DNA from: Desulfobacula sp.
Lineage (GTDB): Bacteria > Desulfobacterota > Desulfobacteria > Desulfobacterales > Desulfobacteraceae
NCBI GenBank assembly: GCA_021647625.1
Contig: JAKIUJ010000004.1
Location: 1 to 47,746 of the forward strand
Direction: 5' to 3'
DNA length: 47,746 bases
The notes under the pieces are model-generated. The model was given only the letters and a program-made list of their open reading frames with translations, did no database searches and was not told where the DNA came from. This document shows positions 827 through 38,903 of the stretch, in pieces (the first letter of the stretch is position 1; each line of letters begins with the position of its first letter). The translations under genes were made by a program, and so were the position numbers.

Positions 827-1696
827 TGGAAAGCCAATTTTAATTCTGACAATTCCATTGAGACTTACGATAAGGCAATTCATTCTTTTTTATCTTTCAT
901 TGGGGTATCTTCTCCACAGGAATTAAGAGAGATTAATCATGGCCATGTGATCGCGTTTAAAAAATATTTACAAAGCCAGGGTCAAAGTCCGCGAACGATA
1001 AATAATAGATTGTCTGCGATTTCTTCTTTGTTTAATCATTTAATTGATAAACAAGTGGTTAAAATTAATGTGGCCCAGGGTGTTCGCCGGATGAAAATTA
1101 ACTCTGACCGGGTTGAGGCAAAAGTGCTGAGTCCAAAGGAAGTCCGGAAAATGTTGAGCATTCCGGATCCGTTCAAGCTCCAGGGATTGAGAGACAAAGC
1201 CATATTGAGCACACTGTTTTTTACCGGCTGCAGAGTGTCTGAAGTCTGCAAGCTCAAGGTAAAGGACTTTTACCAAGAACAAGGGTTTTATATCATGGAT
1301 TTCTGGGTCAAGGGTGGCAAACGAAATCGTCTGGCCATCAACCAGGAGTTGCAGATAACAATAAGAGAATATCTGAGGATGGCCGGCCATGAGGACGAAA
1401 AAGAGAGCTTTTTGTTTTTACCGGTAAAGCATGCTCCCGGAAAAACAGATAAGAAAAGAAAGATGAGTCGGAAGACCATCGATTATTTGTTTAAAAAGTA
1501 TGCAAAGCTCGCTTTGCTTGATGGCGTTACACCGCATTCTGCCCGAGCGACCTTTATCACCCAGGCCCTGGAGAATAATTGTCCTATTGAGGCGGTACAA
1601 AAGACCGTGGGGCATTCTCAGATTAAGACCACCCAGATGTATGACAAGCGAGTTGCCAAGTACCGGGAAAGTGCCAGTTTTGCCGTTAGGTATTAA
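806..1696 (+). CDS. Tyrosine recombinase/integrase, 5'-truncated
   Basis: Frame open from 806, just after TGA 803-805 (QSDKELLWKANFNSDNSIETYDKAIHSFLSFIGVSSPQELREINHGHVIAFKKYL...). Catalytic signature present: GCRVSEVCKL, HSARATF, VGHSQIKTTQMY. Listed ORF starts at GTG 947. Confidence 0.8.
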   Translation, partial: QSDKELLWKANFNSDNSIETYDKAIHSFLSFIGVSSPQELREINHGHVIAFKKYLQSQGQSPRTINNRLSAISSLFNHLIDKQVVKINVAQGVRRMKINSDRVEAKVLSPKEVRKMLSIPDPFKLQGLRDKAILSTLFFTGCRVSEVCKLKVKDFYQEQGFYIMDFWVKGGKRNRLAINQELQITIREYLRMAGHEDEKESFLFLPVKHAPGKTDKKRKMSRKTIDYLFKKYAKLALLDGVTPHSARATFITQALENNCPIEAVQKTVGHSQIKTTQMYDKRVAKYRESASFAVRY

Positions 1697-3180: not shown

Positions 3181-3566
3181 CTCTCAGTCTTTTAAGGAAG
3201 GTCCCGCATCTGTTTTTTAACATCGGCAACCAATTCCATCTGGCATATTGAAACATTTTAAACCTTCATTAAACCAATCGGTTGCAGAAAGTGTGCTATC
3301 TTTATCCATTATATTCCTTCCTATAATGTTTAGGATCTGCGGCTAACCGGATGCCAAAAAAATAGATACTTGCCACAGCTTTTCATCCGGTTTGACCGTA
3401 GCATCCTTTTAGTTGTCCGATCTTTTATATATATGGGGATTTCTAAAAATGCCAATGTTTCATTTAATACGGGCATAACAGGTTCAAACATCTGCGGTTT
3501 ACCCGTCAGCATGTTTTTGTTAGGCTCTCCGCTTTTATCATTCTAATATTGTTTATATTTTTCAAC

Positions 3567-3664: not shown

Positions 3665-5027
3665 ATGGCACAATCATCAATTAAAAATGGTTTTCATATT
3701 TATCAGCCTCGCAATCCCAAAGCAAGCGCTTATTACAAGTGCGTTGAAAGTCATTTTGAAGAATTAGAGCAAGCATGGGATGATATGTATAAATCCCGTT
3801 ATGGCTATTGGCGCACATATGTCATGACTGTGATTTACAAATATCTGGATTGTGGAGATCTTCATTTTGGATTTGCCAGGGTGCGTTGTGAAGATTGTGG
3901 TCATGAGTATTTGTTGGCATTTTCTTGTAAGCGTCGGCATTTTTGTCCCTCATGCCATCAGAAAAGGGTTGTTGAGTATGGAGAATGGTTGCTGACTAAT
4001 GTTTTAAAAGATGTCCCTTATAAACAATGGGTTTTCAGTATCCCCAAAAGATTGCGGATTTATTTTCTTTATGATCGCAAATTGCTGGCAAAACTCTCTA
4101 TATGTGCATGGAATGTTATCACGGCTTACCTTAAATCCACTGTGCTATATGATGATGCTGTTCCCGGCGCCAGTATTGCTGTTCAGACCTATGGTGATTT
4201 TCTCAACTTCAATCCTCATCTCCACGCCATAGTTTTAGATGGATCTTTCCTGGAAGATGGCAGCTTTCAGACTGCATCAGTATTTATGCTTGAAGACCTG
4301 GAAGAGGCATTTCAGTATGAGGTGCTAAAAATGCTCAAGAAAGAGGGAAAGATAAATGATACTATTATTGAGAACATGCTTTCATGGCACCATTCCGGGT
4401 TTTAACGTGTATATTGGTGACAGAATTGAACCTGATGATAAAGCCGGACTTGGCAATCTGGCAAGATATATCATTCGTGCCTGTTTTTCCCAGGAAAGAA
4501 TGGTTTATGTCCCGGCAAAAAAATCTGATGATGGTGTTGCCAAAGTTATTTATACATCCAAAGATAGAAAAACCCGAAAAGTGTTTACTGCTTTGGAGTG
4601 GCTCGCCAGGTTGGTAACACATATTCCCAGCAGATATGAGCATACTGTCAGATATTATGGATATTTTTCAAACAAGTCCAGAGGAATGAGAAAGAAGGCA
4701 GACGCTGATGATGTGATCCAGACAATCATACCAAATGATATGTCTTCCAGCGAAGCAAAACAGAATTGGGCTCGTTTAATTCAAAAAATCTATGAGGTCG
4801 ATCCTCTTGTCTGCCCAAAATGCCAGGGTCAAATGAAAATCATCTCTATCATTGATGATTTTGAAATAATAGATAAAATTTTAAAACATCTGAATCTCTG
4901 GGATATCCGCAACCATGATCCGCCGGAGATAGAAGCTGTTTATATTCCTGAATTAACATATATTGAAGATTCAGATTATGATAATTCAGGCTCACAGATT
5001 CCAGTATTTGACACCTTTTGGAGTTGA
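3665..5027 (+). mobile_element. IS91-like transposase, split by a one-nucleotide frameshift
   Basis: ORFs 3665..4405 and 4356..5027 join as ...SWHHSGF/NVYIGDRIEPDDKAG... at TTTT 4400-4403. N-terminal zinc motif CEDCGHEYLLAFSCKRRHFCPSCHQ, HUH-type 'NPHLHAIVLDG', 'HTVRYYGYFSN', C-terminal CPKCQGQM. Confidence 0.85.
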
Positions 5028-5161: not shown

Positions 5162-5206
5162 ACCCAACCCAGGAAGGGCACATGTTGTGCCCTTCCTGGG
5201 TTGGGT
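5162..5206. repeat. Perfect 21-bp stem, 3-nt loop hairpin downstream of IS91-like element 1
   Basis: ACCCAACCCAGGAAGGGCACA-tgt-TGTGCCCTTCCTGGGTTGGGT, exact reverse complement, no immediate T tract. Confidence 0.9.
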
Positions 5207-11703: not shown

Positions 11704-12089
11704 GAGTCAGATCGTGCCTTGTCATATTAGGATCATGAATTAAGATGTCAGAAATTTTTACGGAAATATGGTTTGAAGTCAAGGACAAAAACTGTTGTCT
11801 CACTGGATCACACGTTCAAACGGTTGCAAGGAGGCCCCCATTGTTACCACAATTTGTTTAAATGAGCAGTTTATAATTATATCCTGACTTTGAAATACAG
11901 CAAAAAACATGCCGATCCATCCTCAATCGCATTCAAAACACAATTCTCGCATCACATCTGTCCGTAACCGGGCAATCTGGTGATACAATATCTATTGCCC
12001 TAAAAAATAAAGCAATTTCCAAGAAACGGATTATTCCGCAGGCTGGTGATCAACGACAAAGTTTCCAAAGTCATGCAGGGGGTGTTGTC

Positions 12090-13181
12090 ATGAGTGATAT
12101 TCAAAAAATCTTCCAAATGTATGGATCACAATATATGGCGCTTTATGGTGATAGAATGCCGCAGTCTCATAAGAAAATCATCCGGGATATCATTAAGTGT
12201 CGAAATGGCGCCTTTGGCACAATGGTGTATGAGTGCAGTGAGTGTCGCAACCTGCATTTTGTCCACTGTTGCTGTGGCAACCGGCATTGATCCAACTGTC
12301 AGCAGAGCAAAGCGGATCAATGGCTTAACCAGCAGATGAAAAAACTTTTGCCAACCCATTACTTCCTGTTAACAATTACACTCCCTCAAGGTCTTCGGGG
12401 GATTGTAAGATCTCACCAGCAACAATCTTATAGCGCACTGTTTTCATGCACCAATAAAGCCCTGAAAAAATTAGCACAGGACACACGATTTGTCGGATCT
12501 GATCAAATCGGATATCTGGCTGCCCTTCATACCTGGGGCGGTATGCTCCAGTATCATCCCCATTTGCATATAGTTATTCCAGGAGGCGCCCTGTCTGATC
12601 ATAATGATCAATGGCTTTCTTCCAGGCAGGATCTATTCGTGCACACAAAACCTCTGGCAATCATTTTCAAAGCCAAATTCAAGGATACAATGAAAAAAGC
12701 CGGGCTGCTGGATAAAATAGATCCCTCAGTTTGGAAACAGCAATGGGTGATTGACAGCCAGGCTGTGGGGCAGGGACAAAACTCCCTGCGTTATCTTTCA
12801 AGATATGTATTCCGTGTTGCTATCACCAACAATCGTATTAAAAGCTTTGAAAATGGTGTTATTAAATTCCTGTACAAAAACCGTGAAAAGAAAAAGTGGA
12901 AAATCATGGCACTTTCTGCCATGGAGTTTATCAGACGATTTTTGCAGCATGTTCTTCCCAAAGGATTTATGAAAATCAGGCATTATGGTTTTCTCAATCC
13001 CAATAGTGCATTGCCAATAGAGAAGATCCGTGAACTCATTTCATTCATCCATGACATTGTTGCACTTTTTACTCAAATCCGGGAACCTGCAGCAATACCT
13101 GGTATTAAATGCAGCCATTGCGGGCATGATTTGAAATTTGTCTTTTTTGCAAAGCCTGAGGCACGGAGCAGGCCCGGATAA
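12090..13181 (+). mobile_element. IS91-like transposase 2 with one in-frame TGA (12288-12290)
   Basis: ORFs 12090..12290 and 12336..13181 are in the same frame: ...VHCCCGNRH*SNCQQSKADQWLNQQMKKLLPTHYFLLTITLP..., HPHLHIVIPGG (HUH), RYLSRYVFRVAI, MKIRHYGFL, C-terminal CSHCGHDL. Confidence 0.88.
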
Positions 13182-13443
13182 CTGCACGAAACTGATTACC
13201 CGGTATTGGTCAGCTTTACAAACAGCCTGTGACATTGGCATGTTTTTGTACCCGTGCGCCAAATTGCCGGTATTTTAATTTTTGACCTGGATTTTTATAG
13301 CTGAAAACGGCCTTGTTTTTGATATTTACATTAGGAGAACGATCCTTTTTAACAAATTTTATCACATTCGATCTTTAAATTTCTGGCCTTCAAGTTACAC
13401 ATCCAGCAAATCGCTTACCTTTTCCCCTAATGATCCGCGGCTT

Positions 13444-13510
13444 CATGAACCATAGGATTAGTACCGAGCCTCGTGCCTCGGCACGGTTACTAATCCTTTA
13501 TTTGTTATGC
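13444..13510 (-). repeat. attC-like recombination site 1
   Basis: Minus strand GCATAAC-aaataaa-GGATTAGTaACCGTGCC...GGCTCGGTACTAATCC-tatg-GTTCATG: imperfect dyad with one extra base in the 5' arm, ends carrying AAC/GTT. Gene stop TAA lies in the R'' box. Confidence 0.65.
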
Positions 13511-14035
13511 AATTTCATGTAATGGTAGATTGACATAAACACGGTCTGATATTGTAGAAATTGTTGAAATATCATATTTTCTTCCCAATTTCGGGATCCA
13601 ATATCTGCCATGTGCTAACCAATGACGATACTTGAGAGCACCAATAAAATCAGAAATGATACTTTTGAAATTTGGGTACTCAGATTTCCATATTGTTAAA
13701 ATTTCATTCTCAAGTGAAACATTTTCCCCCTTTGATTTATGTAGCTCTCTAAACTCCCGTGACAAGTCGTCTTTGTGCTTTTTTGTGGCGCGAATAATGT
13801 AATCAATCCTGAAACTTGCTTCTATTGTGCTTAGAATATTAAATGATATATTTTTTTCTAACTCTGCAAGATGAAGATCGAAAGATTCAATTAATTCATT
13901 TTTTGTTAAACCAATATAATGTTGATTTTTCACTTTACTGCTTGCGATACCTTCTCTATAATAATTTAAGGACTTAGAAGTGGTATGATAATATAGAAAT
14001 ATTTCATTCAAATTCTGGTGTTGATCAGAAAACAT
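13505..14035 (-). CDS. HEPN-like protein (candidate RNase)
   Basis: Alpha-helical 176 aa protein with 'KYRHWLAHGRYW', fitting the Rx4-6H HEPN motif. Confidence 0.55.
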   Translation of the reverse strand: MFSDQHQNLNEIFLYYHTTSKSLNYYREGIASSKVKNQHYIGLTKNELIESFDLHLAELEKNISFNILSTIEASFRIDYIIRATKKHKDDLSREFRELHKSKGENVSLENEILTIWKSEYPNFKSIISDFIGALKYRHWLAHGRYWIPKLGRKYDISTISTISDRVYVNLPLHEIA

Positions 14036-14041
14036 ATTAAA

Positions 14042-14578
14042 TTACCCTCCGATTACTTCTAACACTGCATCCGAAAATGAATCACTATCAAGTTCAATGT
14101 ACTTAATGGCCGGAGGTGGTGTTGAAATTTTCCATACCCATTCTGGTTCTTCTTTCTTCTCTTCTGGTTTAGGTTTGTCACCAACTGCTATATCTACCTT
14201 TATGGATGGACCACCTGATTGTTTCGGGACTAATACAAATTTTATTATCCCATTCTTTCCTTTCATGTCTATCCGCCCCTTAGCTCCGATTAACAACGTA
14301 CCAATAGGTTCTAATAAAATTTGCTCACTGGCGATTTTAATTATCATGTTATTTGCATTGTATATACCGATATGCTCTTCATTTATCTCCTTGTTCTTGT
14401 ATTCAAAAGAGATGACGTCACTATCTTCAAGATCATTTAACCAACTTTCAATTTGACCATATATTTCATTTAAAGATTGTAGCCATTCATCTTTGTGTTT
14501 TTCCCAATCTATTTTTTCCTCATCAACTGCATTTTGTTTCTTGGCATTAATGAATACCTGTAAGTCTTTTTTTCCCAT
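14042..14578 (-). CDS. Hypothetical protein, partner of the HEPN-like gene
   Basis: 178 aa ORF starting 30 nt after the attC-like site, 6-nt gap to the next gene; no family recognised. Confidence 0.6.
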   Translation of the reverse strand: MGKKDLQVFINAKKQNAVDEEKIDWEKHKDEWLQSLNEIYGQIESWLNDLEDSDVISFEYKNKEINEEHIGIYNANNMIIKIASEQILLEPIGTLLIGAKGRIDMKGKNGIIKFVLVPKQSGGPSIKVDIAVGDKPKPEEKKEEPEWVWKISTPPPAIKYIELDSDSFSDAVLEVIGG

Positions 14579-14607
14579 GTTAATTTACCTCCGATTTTAT
14601 TTTTATG

Positions 14608-14707
14608 CATAACGCTGAAAATGAGCTGACACAAAAGCCGCTGAAATATTTGGATTTAACGAAAAATCGGCTCGGCTTTTGTGGTCAGCTCCATTTTTTT
14701 GTTCAAG
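14608..14707 (-). repeat. attC-like recombination site 2
   Basis: Minus strand CTTGAAC-aaaaaatg-GAGCTGACcACAAAAGCCG...CGGCTTTTGTGTCAGCTC-attttcagc-GTTATGC; one extra base in the 5' arm. Confidence 0.68.
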
Positions 14708-14832
14708 TAAGCCGCTCCGCGGCAGATTAAGCCATACAATCATTGTTCAATTCCATTACTCATGGTATCTTCTTACCGGCTTGCAGGTCGGTATCTTCGC
14801 CCGACAAGGTTTAAAGAAGAAAGGAAGATACC

Positions 14833-15867
14833 ATGAGCAATTTAATCAAACGTTTCAAAGAAGATCTCCAACTTGCCGGTTATGCAAAAAGGAGTATTCA
14901 ATCCTATACCAGCGCAGTTTTAAAACTACAACGCTTTTACAATAAACCATTAGAAGATATCAGCGAAGAGCAGTTACGTCAATACTGGCTTTGCTGCCAG
15001 AATGAGTTTGGTTGGAGTGCTGCTACACTGCGTATCAGCTACTCTGGTATTCAGCATTTTTTTACCAGAACGCTGGTTCAATCCTGGAACATTTTCAACA
15101 ACATCAAATGGAAGCGTGAGCAAACCTTACCAACTATTCTGAGCCTGGAGGAGGTCAGGCAAATTATTTATGCCCTTCCCACTGTGCAAAGCCATACTTT
15201 TTATTTGACATTGTATTCCATGGGACTGCGGTTGAGGGAAGCTACAACACTCCAGGTTAAAGATATTCTTTCCGACAGGGGACTTGTGCATATTCACTGC
15301 GGTAAAGGGGCCATGGACAGGACAGTGCCTTTACCTGAAATCACCCTGTTGGCTTTACGCAAATATTATAAAACACATTGCAATCCCAAATGGATATTCC
15401 CTGCTTTGGGCCGCAACGGCGGTAAGAATGCCCAATATGCCAAAAGTCACGTGAGCGACAGTGGCGTTCAAGGCGTTTTGCGATCTACTTTGAAACGCCT
15501 GAAGTTTAAAAAACATGTTCACCCTCATGTATTCCGCCATGCGTATGCGACTCATCTGCTGGAAGCCAATATCCCCATACGGCATGTTCAAAAAATATTA
15601 GGCCATAAAACGCTTAAGAGCACCATGATTTATCTGCATGTGACCACACAGGCTCAAGTCAGAGGCTGTAGCGGTAATTGTTTTTGGCAAGAAGCATCCA
15701 TGCTTCTTTTATATCAAATTATTTTACTCGTGTTCCGAACTTTTTTTAAAAATTTGATAAAAACTTTACTAACCCGAATATTTACGTTTGATGGATTGTT
15801 TTGTCTCCATGAATCTATTCTATCCTTACTCATTTTTTTATCATTTGGTAATAAACACCGCCTATGA
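14833..15867 (+). CDS. Tyrosine recombinase/integrase of the type often linked to IS91-like elements; C-terminus altered
   Basis: MGLRLREATTLQ, HPHVFRHAYATHLLE, ILGHKTLKSTMIYLHV. After 'TTQAQVRG' the sequence (about 15665 on) looks non-homologous. Confidence 0.85.
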   Translation: MSNLIKRFKEDLQLAGYAKRSIQSYTSAVLKLQRFYNKPLEDISEEQLRQYWLCCQNEFGWSAATLRISYSGIQHFFTRTLVQSWNIFNNIKWKREQTLPTILSLEEVRQIIYALPTVQSHTFYLTLYSMGLRLREATTLQVKDILSDRGLVHIHCGKGAMDRTVPLPEITLLALRKYYKTHCNPKWIFPALGRNGGKNAQYAKSHVSDSGVQGVLRSTLKRLKFKKHVHPHVFRHAYATHLLEANIPIRHVQKILGHKTLKSTMIYLHVTTQAQVRGCSGNCFWQEASMLLLYQIILLVFRTFFKNLIKTLLTRIFTFDGLFCLHESILSLLIFLSFGNKHRL

Positions 15868-37321: not shown

Positions 37322-37654
37322 ATGGCAAAACAAAGAACATATTCGAAATACGCTCAAGAAGCGGCTCAATTACTTGGAAAGCAAATCAAGCTTGCTCGTA
37401 AACAAAGAAAGTGGTCTGAACAAAATTTGGCTGACAGGGCTGGTATATCAAGAACAACACTACAAAAAATAGAACGTGGTGAAATGACCTGTGCAATTGG
37501 GCTGGTCTTTGAGACTGCTGCTTTAGTGGGACTCAACTTATTTGAACAAGACAGGCTCCCTCTTTCGATAAGCATAGAGAATGCAAACAATAAATTAGCT
37601 CTCATGCCACGCCGTATCAAACCTAAAACAAAGGCGGTAGATGATGACTTCTAA
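37322..37654 (+). CDS. hipB: HipB-like XRE-family antitoxin/regulator
   Basis: HTH: LADRAGISRTTLQKIERGEMTCAIGLVFETAALVGL; overlaps the hipA start. ATG at 37322. Confidence 0.85.
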   Translation: MAKQRTYSKYAQEAAQLLGKQIKLARKQRKWSEQNLADRAGISRTTLQKIERGEMTCAIGLVFETAALVGLNLFEQDRLPLSISIENANNKLALMPRRIKPKTKAVDDDF

Positions 37655-38903
37655 GAAAAACAATGAAGCCTTTGTTTGGATATGGCTACCGGATGAAACA
37701 CAACCCGTTGTAGCTGGAAAACTTGAGGCTGAGAATGGTTTTATCCATTTTAACTATGGTAAAAGTTACCTTGGACGCATAAACGACAAGAATCCGGCCA
37801 TTTCAATATATGAACCGGAACTACCTTTAAAATCAGGAATCTTACCCCTATCCGACGGCTTGGAAATGCCCAACTGCATAAGAGATGCAGCTCCAGATGC
37901 ATGGGGGCGACGTGTAATTATAAATAGAAAGCTGGGGCGAAAAGGAACAGATACGGATACAGCCGACTTGAGTGAGCTTACCTATCTTTTGGAATCTGGA
38001 TCTGATCGGATTGGAGCACTTGATTTTCAGCTTTCACCGGCTGAATATATCCCCAGATCGGCTAATAATGCTCGTTTAGAAGAATTGTTAGAATCTGCAG
38101 AAAGGGTTGAACAAGGCGTCCCGTTAAAGCCTGAACTGGATCAAGCACTTTTCCACGGTAGTTCAATCGGCGGTGCAAGGCCAAAAGCCTTAATTGAAGA
38201 TCATAACACCAAATACATTGCTAAATTTGCTTCCAGCAGTGATATCTACAGCGTCGTTAAGGCGGAATTTATTGCCATGAGATTGGCAGCACTTGCAGGG
38301 CTTGATGTTGTCCCTGTTAAATTGGTTGAAGCCGCAGGCAAAGATATTCTGCTGATCGAACGTTTTGATCGCATCAAATCTGAAAATGGTTGGACACGCA
38401 AAGCAATGATTTCAGCTTTGACTATATTCGGTTTAAACGATATGACAGCCCGATATGCAAGCTATGAAGATCTTGCAGAAATCATTCGTCATCGCTTTTC
38501 TAATCCTAAAGATACTCTCAGGGAAATGTTTAGCCGCCTTGTATTTAATATACTGTGCGGAAACACTGATGATCATGCCAGAAACCATGCTGCTTTCTGG
38601 GACGGTAAAGAGCTTACGCTTACTCCTGCATATGATATCTGTCCACAAGGTCGGGCGGGAAATGAAGCATCCCAGGCTATGAAAATTTCAGGAGATAATA
38701 ACCTCAGCCAATTGAAGTATTGTCTTGAGACCGCACACCATTTCTTACTGTCTAAAAAAGAGGCCTTGTCAATATGCGAGCACATTAAGGGGGTTATTCA
38801 GCAATATTGGGATAAGGTGTGTGAGGAAGCATATCTTCAGGATGTAGATAAAAAACTGCTCTGGAAACGTCAGTTTCTAAATCCTTTTTCATTTGAAAAA
38901 TAA
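37641..38903 (+). CDS. hipA: HipA-like serine/threonine kinase toxin
   Basis: GSSIGGARPKALIEDHNTKYIAKFASSSD; VFNILCGNTDDHARNHAAFWDGK; LTPAYDICPQGR. Confidence 0.93.
   Translation: MMTSKKNNEAFVWIWLPDETQPVVAGKLEAENGFIHFNYGKSYLGRINDKNPAISIYEPELPLKSGILPLSDGLEMPNCIRDAAPDAWGRRVIINRKLGRKGTDTDTADLSELTYLLESGSDRIGALDFQLSPAEYIPRSANNARLEELLESAERVEQGVPLKPELDQALFHGSSIGGARPKALIEDHNTKYIAKFASSSDIYSVVKAEFIAMRLAALAGLDVVPVKLVEAAGKDILLIERFDRIKSENGWTRKAMISALTIFGLNDMTARYASYEDLAEIIRHRFSNPKDTLREMFSRLVFNILCGNTDDHARNHAAFWDGKELTLTPAYDICPQGRAGNEASQAMKISGDNNLSQLKYCLETAHHFLLSKKEALSICEHIKGVIQQYWDKVCEEAYLQDVDKKLLWKRQFLNPFSFEK

What the first reader, a model, noticed from the sequence alone, without database searches (positions are those of the whole stretch)
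13444..14707. HEPN-like two-gene unit carried as an integron-type gene cassette with no integron integrase in the window
Two attC-like sites flank the pair. On the minus strand both have one extra base in the 5' arm, as in attC extrahelical bases. The gene stop (TAA) lies in the R'' box GCATAAC, and the cassette start G/TTATGC is its exact complement, as expected when the circular cassette closes. The upstream ATG is about 30 nt after the site. This is typical cassette geometry and argues for a CALIN-like remnant or a mobilised cassette.
Basis: partly seen in the sequence, partly recalled or inferred. Interest (0 to 1): 0.72.

Follow-up and report, generated by a model that had tools for sequence, protein, structure and literature searches.

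The report
Integron-cassette RNase pair, transposon-captured
A two-gene unit encoding a probable RNA-cutting (HEPN) protein is a genuine integron gene cassette found in several bacterial phyla, and here it is joined to the two halves of a transposon family that homes in on integron recombination sites; the pair has no annotated family and its function is untested.

Summary
Both hairpins, the GTTATGC/GCATAAC ends, the TAA inside R'' and the 34-nt leader are present, and no integron integrase (IntI) lies in the window. The genome does hold two IntI genes on other contigs, one beside a canonical attC array.

The HEPN pair is a real gene cassette: relatives sit at canonical attC sites in at least 8 loci (Desulfobacterota, Vibrio, Lysobacterales, Methylococcales, a Bacteroidales bin). 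The closest (61% identity) ends in the same GCATAAC. Site 2 is a genuine attC family (25 of 292 class genomes).

Site 1 is not the cassette's own attC. It is the conserved right end of a mobile element encoding a tyrosine recombinase and an IS91-type Y2 transposase. That element is multicopy in integrons of this class. It inserts at the AA|C of the attC R'' box: 34/35 left flanks end in G, 20/20 right flanks begin TT. The window holds one copy split and circularly permuted around the HEPN cassette, so this is a mobilised cassette-transposon composite, now apparently inactive, rather than a simple CALIN.

Protein function is inferred: HEPN fold with Rx4H motif; toxin or anti-phage RNase most likely.

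The parts
13505..14035 (-). HEPN-type gene (P0001, 176 aa), Rx4H motif R137-H142 in RHWLAHGRYW
   Evidence: invariant motif in 64 relatives; model pLDDT 92.9, all-helical; weak top Foldseek hits are HEPN toxins
14042..14578 (-). partner gene (P0002, 178 aa), beta-rich, conserved directly upstream of the HEPN gene
   Evidence: (87 of 95 HEPN ORFs have it)
13505..14612 (-). cassette body TTATGC...GCATAA between the two G|TT / AA|C crossover points
   Evidence: relatives with the same R'' GCATAAC:
14613..14701 (-). attC hairpin 2 (attC2), joined to the cassette start by G|TTATGC; its R'' has been replaced by CTTGAA of the transposon left end
13444..13504 (+). hairpin 1: conserved right-end hairpin of the int-IS91 element, attC-shaped; ends TTTATTTG|TT
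   Evidence: 20 distinct right flanks, all begin TT
12051..13504 (+). right half of the int-IS91 element (IS91 transposase pseudogene with in-frame TGA at 12288-12290, right end)
14702..15659 (+). left half of the same element: left end TTCAAGTAAGCCGC and tyrosine recombinase truncated after residue 277

Best explanation
What it is: a promoterless integron gene cassette carrying a HEPN ribonuclease gene and its upstream partner. Its own attC is of the hairpin-2 type, with boxes GTTATGC/GCATAAC. An int-IS91 transposon inserted into the R'' box (AA|C) of that attC. Its terminal hairpin (hairpin 1) now sits where the cassette's attC was, and the original attC hairpin was moved to the transposon's far end. 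The present order (IS91 half, hairpin 1, HEPN cassette, hairpin 2, int half) is a circular permutation. A circle containing cassette plus transposon, such as an excised two-cassette circle, must have formed and then been opened between int and tnp when it landed in the chromosome outside any integron. Shown by sequence: cassette boundaries, relatives as cassettes, hairpin 2 as an attC family, hairpin 1 as element end, the insertion rule, and the permutation. Inferred: the enzyme responsible (Y2 transposase or tyrosine recombinase), the circle intermediate, and the protein function. For function I commit to a HEPN RNase that cuts host RNA, held or triggered by the partner, acting as a toxin or abortive anti-phage module (about 60%); this was not tested.
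For: (1) The pair is a cassette elsewhere. L022 (61% aa identity) ends GGCATAAC + canonical attC (41.9 bits, E 2e-6) and begins G|TTATGCC. L037, L051, L056, L076, L087 and L098 also have attC at the pair's edge. L079 is a Vibrio contig with a VCR-like attC upstream, and the pair follows a cassette with two small ORFs that read like a YefM/YoeB toxin-antitoxin pair. (2) Hairpin 2: 25 of 292 class genomes, typically RNNNAA|C...G|TT between different genes. L056 has the uninterrupted junction HEPN-GCATAAC-hairpin 2. (3) Hairpin 1 is the right end of a multicopy element: G429 has 8 intact recombinase copies, element ends always in the same polarity, between a cassette gene and its attC. 34 of 35 distinct left flanks end in G and 20 of 20 distinct right flanks begin TT. 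10 of 16 independent left flanks score above the 95% null for an attC hairpin (recounted from the rows). (4) Permutation: full copies run int then tnp; the window's breaks at 12051 and 15659 are at most 7 bp apart on the full element. (5) HEPN motif invariant in 64 relatives.
Against: The home-made attC model does not detect either window site. Hairpin 1 has only one extra base and uneven spacers. The permutation rests on one contig of a 332-contig bin and could be an assembly chimera. No joined flank (empty site) was found in the genus. Foldseek support for HEPN is weak (best E 0.73). The cassette has only a 34-nt leader, little room for its own promoter, which argues against a classical self-expressed toxin-antitoxin module.
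Confidence: 0.8

Rival explanations
1. One reading: an ordinary cassette or CALIN remnant in which hairpin 1 is the HEPN cassette's own attC and hairpin 2 the attC of the preceding cassette.
For: Both hairpins have the extra base in the canonical arm on the minus strand, and the geometry allows IntI to excise TTATGC..hairpin 1 as a circle. CALIN is defined as at least 2 attC without IntI (PMC9024848).
Against: Hairpin 1 is conserved to 100% next to the int-IS91 right end in many unrelated contexts and is followed by other genes there; the two outer boxes are the transposon's ends; the hairpin-2 type follows the pair in L056.
Confidence: 0.1
2. The HEPN pair is a passenger (cargo) gene of the int-IS91 transposon rather than an integron cassette.
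For: In the window it lies between the two halves of one element.
Against: The intact copies examined carry no HEPN pair, and at least eight HEPN pairs are cassettes with no such element.
Confidence: 0.07
3. The hairpins are transcription terminators or chance palindromes and the box complementarity is coincidence.
For: attC-like matches at low stringency are common in the window and the covariance model is silent on both sites.
Against: Exact 7-mer complementarity at both ends of one operon, conserved hairpin families in dozens of genomes with G|TT junctions, and homologous pairs with canonical attC.
Confidence: 0.02
4. Function rival: the partner is not an antitoxin or sensor and the pair acts in ordinary RNA metabolism (the HEPN protein as a housekeeping or regulatory RNase or RNA binder).
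For: No toxin-antitoxin or defence family matches either protein; no own promoter room in the cassette.
Against: Sporadic distribution over phyla, small Klebsiella plasmids, viral contigs and integrons; some immediate neighbours are defence genes such as DarTG, PtuA, Cmr, RT (no control run).
Confidence: 0.2

Closest known systems
Integron gene cassettes of sedentary chromosomal integrons, including defence and toxin-antitoxin cassettes (Darracq et al. 2025, reviewed in PMC12409362)
   Same: Promoterless two-gene cassette, stop codon in R'', G|TT boundaries, attC hairpin; relatives lie in real arrays, one beside a small two-gene cassette that reads like a toxin-antitoxin pair.
   Different: The protein family is unannotated; the window copy lies outside an array and its own attC hairpin was displaced by a transposon.
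IS91 / ISCR family (Y2 HUH transposases; target 5'-GAAC or GTTC, cited in PMC7758954)
   Same: NF033538 IS91 transposase at 356 bits in the intact relative and 256 bits in the window copy; ends GTTCAAG and C(T/A)TGAAC; subterminal hairpins.
   Different: Has an upstream tyrosine recombinase gene that overlaps it (ATGA), and targets the R'' box of integron attC sites; both ends sit in a G|TT context.
IS1111-attC group (Tetu and Holmes 2008; Post and Hall 2009; cited in PMC11187229)
   Same: Insertion sequences that target one end of attC sites of gene cassettes.
   Different: Those use DEDD transposases guided by seekRNA; this element encodes a Y2 transposase and a tyrosine recombinase and carries an attC-shaped terminal hairpin.
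HEPN toxins of HEPN-MNT systems (PDB 7ae8, 5yep, 6m6u)
   Same: All-helical fold and Rx4-6H motif; they are among the top, though weak, structure matches.
   Different: The partner is not recognisable as an MNT nucleotidyltransferase and precedes the HEPN gene.

Membership tests
integron gene cassette | Body bounded by G|TTRRRY and RYYYAAC that are complementary | tested here: met
   G|TTATGC / GCATAAC, exact 7-mer complement at 14613-14607 and 13510-13504; each departs from the strict consensus at one position, as do many attC of this class
integron gene cassette | Own attC with stem, extrahelical bases and covariance-model support | tested here: inconclusive
   Hairpin 2 is a conserved attC family but scores nothing with model R1 in the window; relatives score 30-47 bits
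integron gene cassette | Homologues occur as cassettes in attC arrays | tested here: met
   L022, L037, L051, L056, L076, L079, L087, L098
integron gene cassette | Excision or integration by IntI | not testable with these tools
   two IntI genes exist elsewhere in the genome; activity untested
CALIN | Two or more attC sites, no IntI nearby | tested here: inconclusive
   two attC-shaped sites, but one is a transposon end and neither passes the model used
IS91 family (for the flanking element) | Y2 transposase with zinc-binding and Y2_Tnp domains | tested here: met
   NF033538 356 bits in the intact copy; window copy 256 bits but interrupted
IS91 family (for the flanking element) | Insertion at GAAC/GTTC without target duplication | tested here: inconclusive
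   element ends carry GTTC/GAAC, but flanking target is G|TT of the attC R'' box in 34 of 35 left and 20 of 20 right flanks
integron integrase (P0003) | TIGR02249 above cut-off, with the IntI-specific extra region | tested here: not met
   151 bits against 265; the match skips profile positions 179-202
HEPN ribonuclease | HEPN fold with Rx4-6H motif | tested here: inconclusive
   motif invariant in 64 sequences, all-helical model pLDDT 92.9, Foldseek matches to HEPN toxins not significant
HEPN-MNT toxin-antitoxin | MNT-fold nucleotidyltransferase antitoxin | tested here: not met
   partner has no Pfam match (AbiEii at E 0.099 only) and no PDB fold match

The most novel reading that the evidence does not exclude
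The int-IS91 elements are a class of self-mobile, integron-homing transposons. Their Y2 transposase exposes single-stranded DNA, and their attC-shaped end hairpin and tyrosine recombinase join it to attC R'' boxes, so that they swap attC hairpins between cassettes and carry adjacent cassettes (here a HEPN defence pair) out of the integron as circles without IntI.
Probability: 0.25. Interest if true: 0.85.

Novelty: new variant of a known kind. Interest (0 to 1): 0.6.

Why it matters
It adds an unannotated two-gene HEPN module to the integron cassette pool across phyla. It also exposes a widespread element (30 of 292 genomes of the class carry its recombinase at E<=1e-50) that targets the R'' side of attC sites. 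That side is not the one IntI cuts, so the element would rewrite which attC belongs to which gene and offer a route for cassettes to leave integrons without IntI. Both claims are directly testable.

Tried and rejected
Rfam cmscan of the window: no match. RF01731 was a wrong guess for an attC family. A loose stem/box scan gave dozens of false sites in the window, so it was replaced by strict scoring, a covariance model and junction statistics. Terminator or chance reading rejected. Cargo-of-transposon reading rejected because intact element copies examined lack the pair. HEPN-MNT membership rejected. Known defence families: none. Search for the empty chromosomal site at 12050|15660 in the genus: only one flank matches, as a repeated segment. 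A first run of the transposase comparison used a wrong reading frame and was redone. A literature search for IS91-type elements targeting attC found none; this library lacks most subscription papers. Two tallies were recounted from the output before reporting (left-flank attC scores; unique junctions).

Full report
OBSERVATION. The described features are in the sequence. On the minus strand a cassette body runs from TTATGC (14612) to GCATAA (13505), with the HEPN stop TAA inside R''. It is bounded by two hairpins, 14613-14701 (hairpin 2, upstream) and 13444-13504 (hairpin 1, downstream). Both fold better than all 200 shuffles. The window has no IntI. The genome does: contig C150 (418 bits) and C53 (341 bits) exceed the curated 265-bit cut-off. 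Beside the C150 integrase lies a textbook attC (L009 1605-1676) between two cassette genes (50 bits with the attC model, which was trained on it).

THE PAIR. P0002 (178 aa) and P0001 (176 aa) match no Pfam, NCBIfam, PADLOC or PHROGs family. One genome scan gave 80 loci from many phyla; the partner lies directly upstream in 87 of 95 HEPN ORFs, mostly overlapping by a few bases. The HEPN protein has an invariant RxWLAHGRYW in 64 relatives, an all-helical model at pLDDT 92.9, and weak structure matches headed by HEPN toxins. The partner model is beta-rich, with no match. Relatives also lie on small Klebsiella plasmids and viral contigs. Among 107 neighbouring proteins, some are defence genes, but no control set was scanned, so this is only suggestive.

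IS IT A CASSETTE ELSEWHERE? Yes. I built a covariance model from 19 canonical short attC sites. Over 1.05 Mb of HEPN loci it finds sites at the edges of the pair in L022, L037, L051, L056, L076, L087 and L098 (30-47 bits; positions compared with the pair). In the closest relative, L022, the HEPN gene ends in GGCATAAC followed by a canonical attC, and the cassette begins G|TTATGCC. In Vibrio L079 the pair sits between VCR-type sites, the downstream one cut by an inserted transposase gene, next to a cassette with two small ORFs that I read as YefM/YoeB. The same model reports neither window site at E<=10. It also misses the long resident sites of G429, so its silence on hairpin 2 is weak evidence; its silence on hairpin 1 agrees with what follows.

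SITE 2 is an attC. Its hairpin occurs in 25 of 292 genomes of the class, up to 100% identical. In nearly all of the printed contexts it is preceded by NNAA|C and most are followed by G|TT, between different genes; some lie near IntI genes listed. In L056 it directly follows the HEPN pair (GCATAAC-hairpin-GTTAGGG), which is the uninterrupted arrangement.

SITE 1 is a transposon end. BLAST of the flanks shows that window 14702-15659 and 12051-13504 are adjacent, in that order, in L155 (G429, same genus). There an intact tyrosine recombinase gene (291 aa) overlaps an IS91 transposase gene (361 aa, 356 bits) by ATGA. G429 carries eight intact recombinase copies, several beside its IntI. In every G429 array copy mapped, the element runs opposite to the cassettes, with its left end against an attC hairpin and hairpin 1 against the end of a cassette gene. 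Thus it inserts at the AA|C of the R'' box. Counting distinct flanks over all fetched loci, 34 of 35 left flanks end in G and 20 of 20 right flanks of close copies begin with TT. Of 16 independent left flanks, I recount 10 above the 95% null for an attC hairpin (the script's own line, 12 of 18, counts duplicate loci). More distant relatives (40-53% identity) in other families show the same end design, although several of their left flanks do not score as attC. Thirty of 292 class genomes have the recombinase at E<=1e-50.

THE WINDOW COPY is split and circularly permuted around the HEPN cassette. The outer breakpoints (after CAAGT of int; before AACGACAAAG ahead of tnp) are within 7 bp of each other on the full element. 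If the two truncations were independent, I estimate roughly 14/2400, or 0.6%, for such agreement (inference). The simplest history is: the element entered the R'' box of the HEPN cassette's attC; cassette plus element formed a circle; the circle was opened between int and tnp on landing here. The tnp copy has an in-frame TGA at codon 67 and int is truncated (match to residue 277), so the copy is probably dead. A chimeric contig remains possible.

MECHANISM. Shown: boundaries, families, insertion rule, polarity. Inferred: which enzyme acts. The element ends carry GTTC/GAAC, the reported IS91 target (cited in PMC7758954), favouring a Y2 single-strand route into the folded attC. The recombinase is not IntI (151 bits; the match skips a stretch of the IntI profile). 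Known attC-targeting insertion sequences are of the IS1111 group (PMC11187229), and group II introns are also associated with integrons (abstract of PMC7923331, listed); a group II intron maturase recurs in the G429 array too. I found no report of an IS91/tyrosine-recombinase element with this target, in a library without most subscription papers.

FUNCTION. Chromosomal integrons are now seen as stores of anti-phage cassettes (Darracq et al., reviewed in PMC12409362). A HEPN RNase with a conserved partner fits that, or a toxin-antitoxin role. The 34-nt leader leaves little room for a promoter, so expression would depend on outside transcription. None of this was tested.

VERDICT. A real, mobilised integron cassette of a new HEPN two-gene family, embedded in a split copy of an integron-homing int-IS91 transposon. 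The cassette is a new member of a known kind; the transposon is a new variant of a known kind.

Noticed in passing
L195-L202 (G429), L247-L265: Multicopy int-IS91 element family inserted at attC R'' boxes across the class; treated in the report but deserves its own study.
   Followed up: partly
L195 2849-4189, 4780-6120, 14097-15437, 17417-18757; L196 several: 446-aa ORF repeated in the G429 integron, always opposite to the cassettes; the one copy scanned is a group II intron maturase (TIGR04416, 420 bits).
   Followed up: partly
window 3473-3525: Weak short attC-like hairpin (GCCTAAC...GTTATGC on the minus strand, 13.3 bits, E 0.54) just ahead of a second, broken IS91 transposase (3665-5027).
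   Followed up: no
window 839-1696: Another tyrosine recombinase gene, also not IntI (46 bits to TIGR02249).
   Followed up: no
window 5162-5206: Perfect 21-bp inverted repeat with a 3-nt loop in an intergenic region, probably a terminator.
   Followed up: no
window 37641-38903: HipA-like kinase gene (PF07804), a possible second toxin-type gene in the window.
   Followed up: no
window 15664-15785: Segment after the right breakpoint recurs in several genomes of the genus (77-93% identity), possibly a dispersed repeat.
   Followed up: partly
L195 1627-2046: First cassette next to the G429 IntI encodes a HicB-like antitoxin (PF15919).
   Followed up: no
L261, near the right end of its int-IS91 copy: The right-end hairpin is present twice in tandem, as if a second end had been added.
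   Followed up: no
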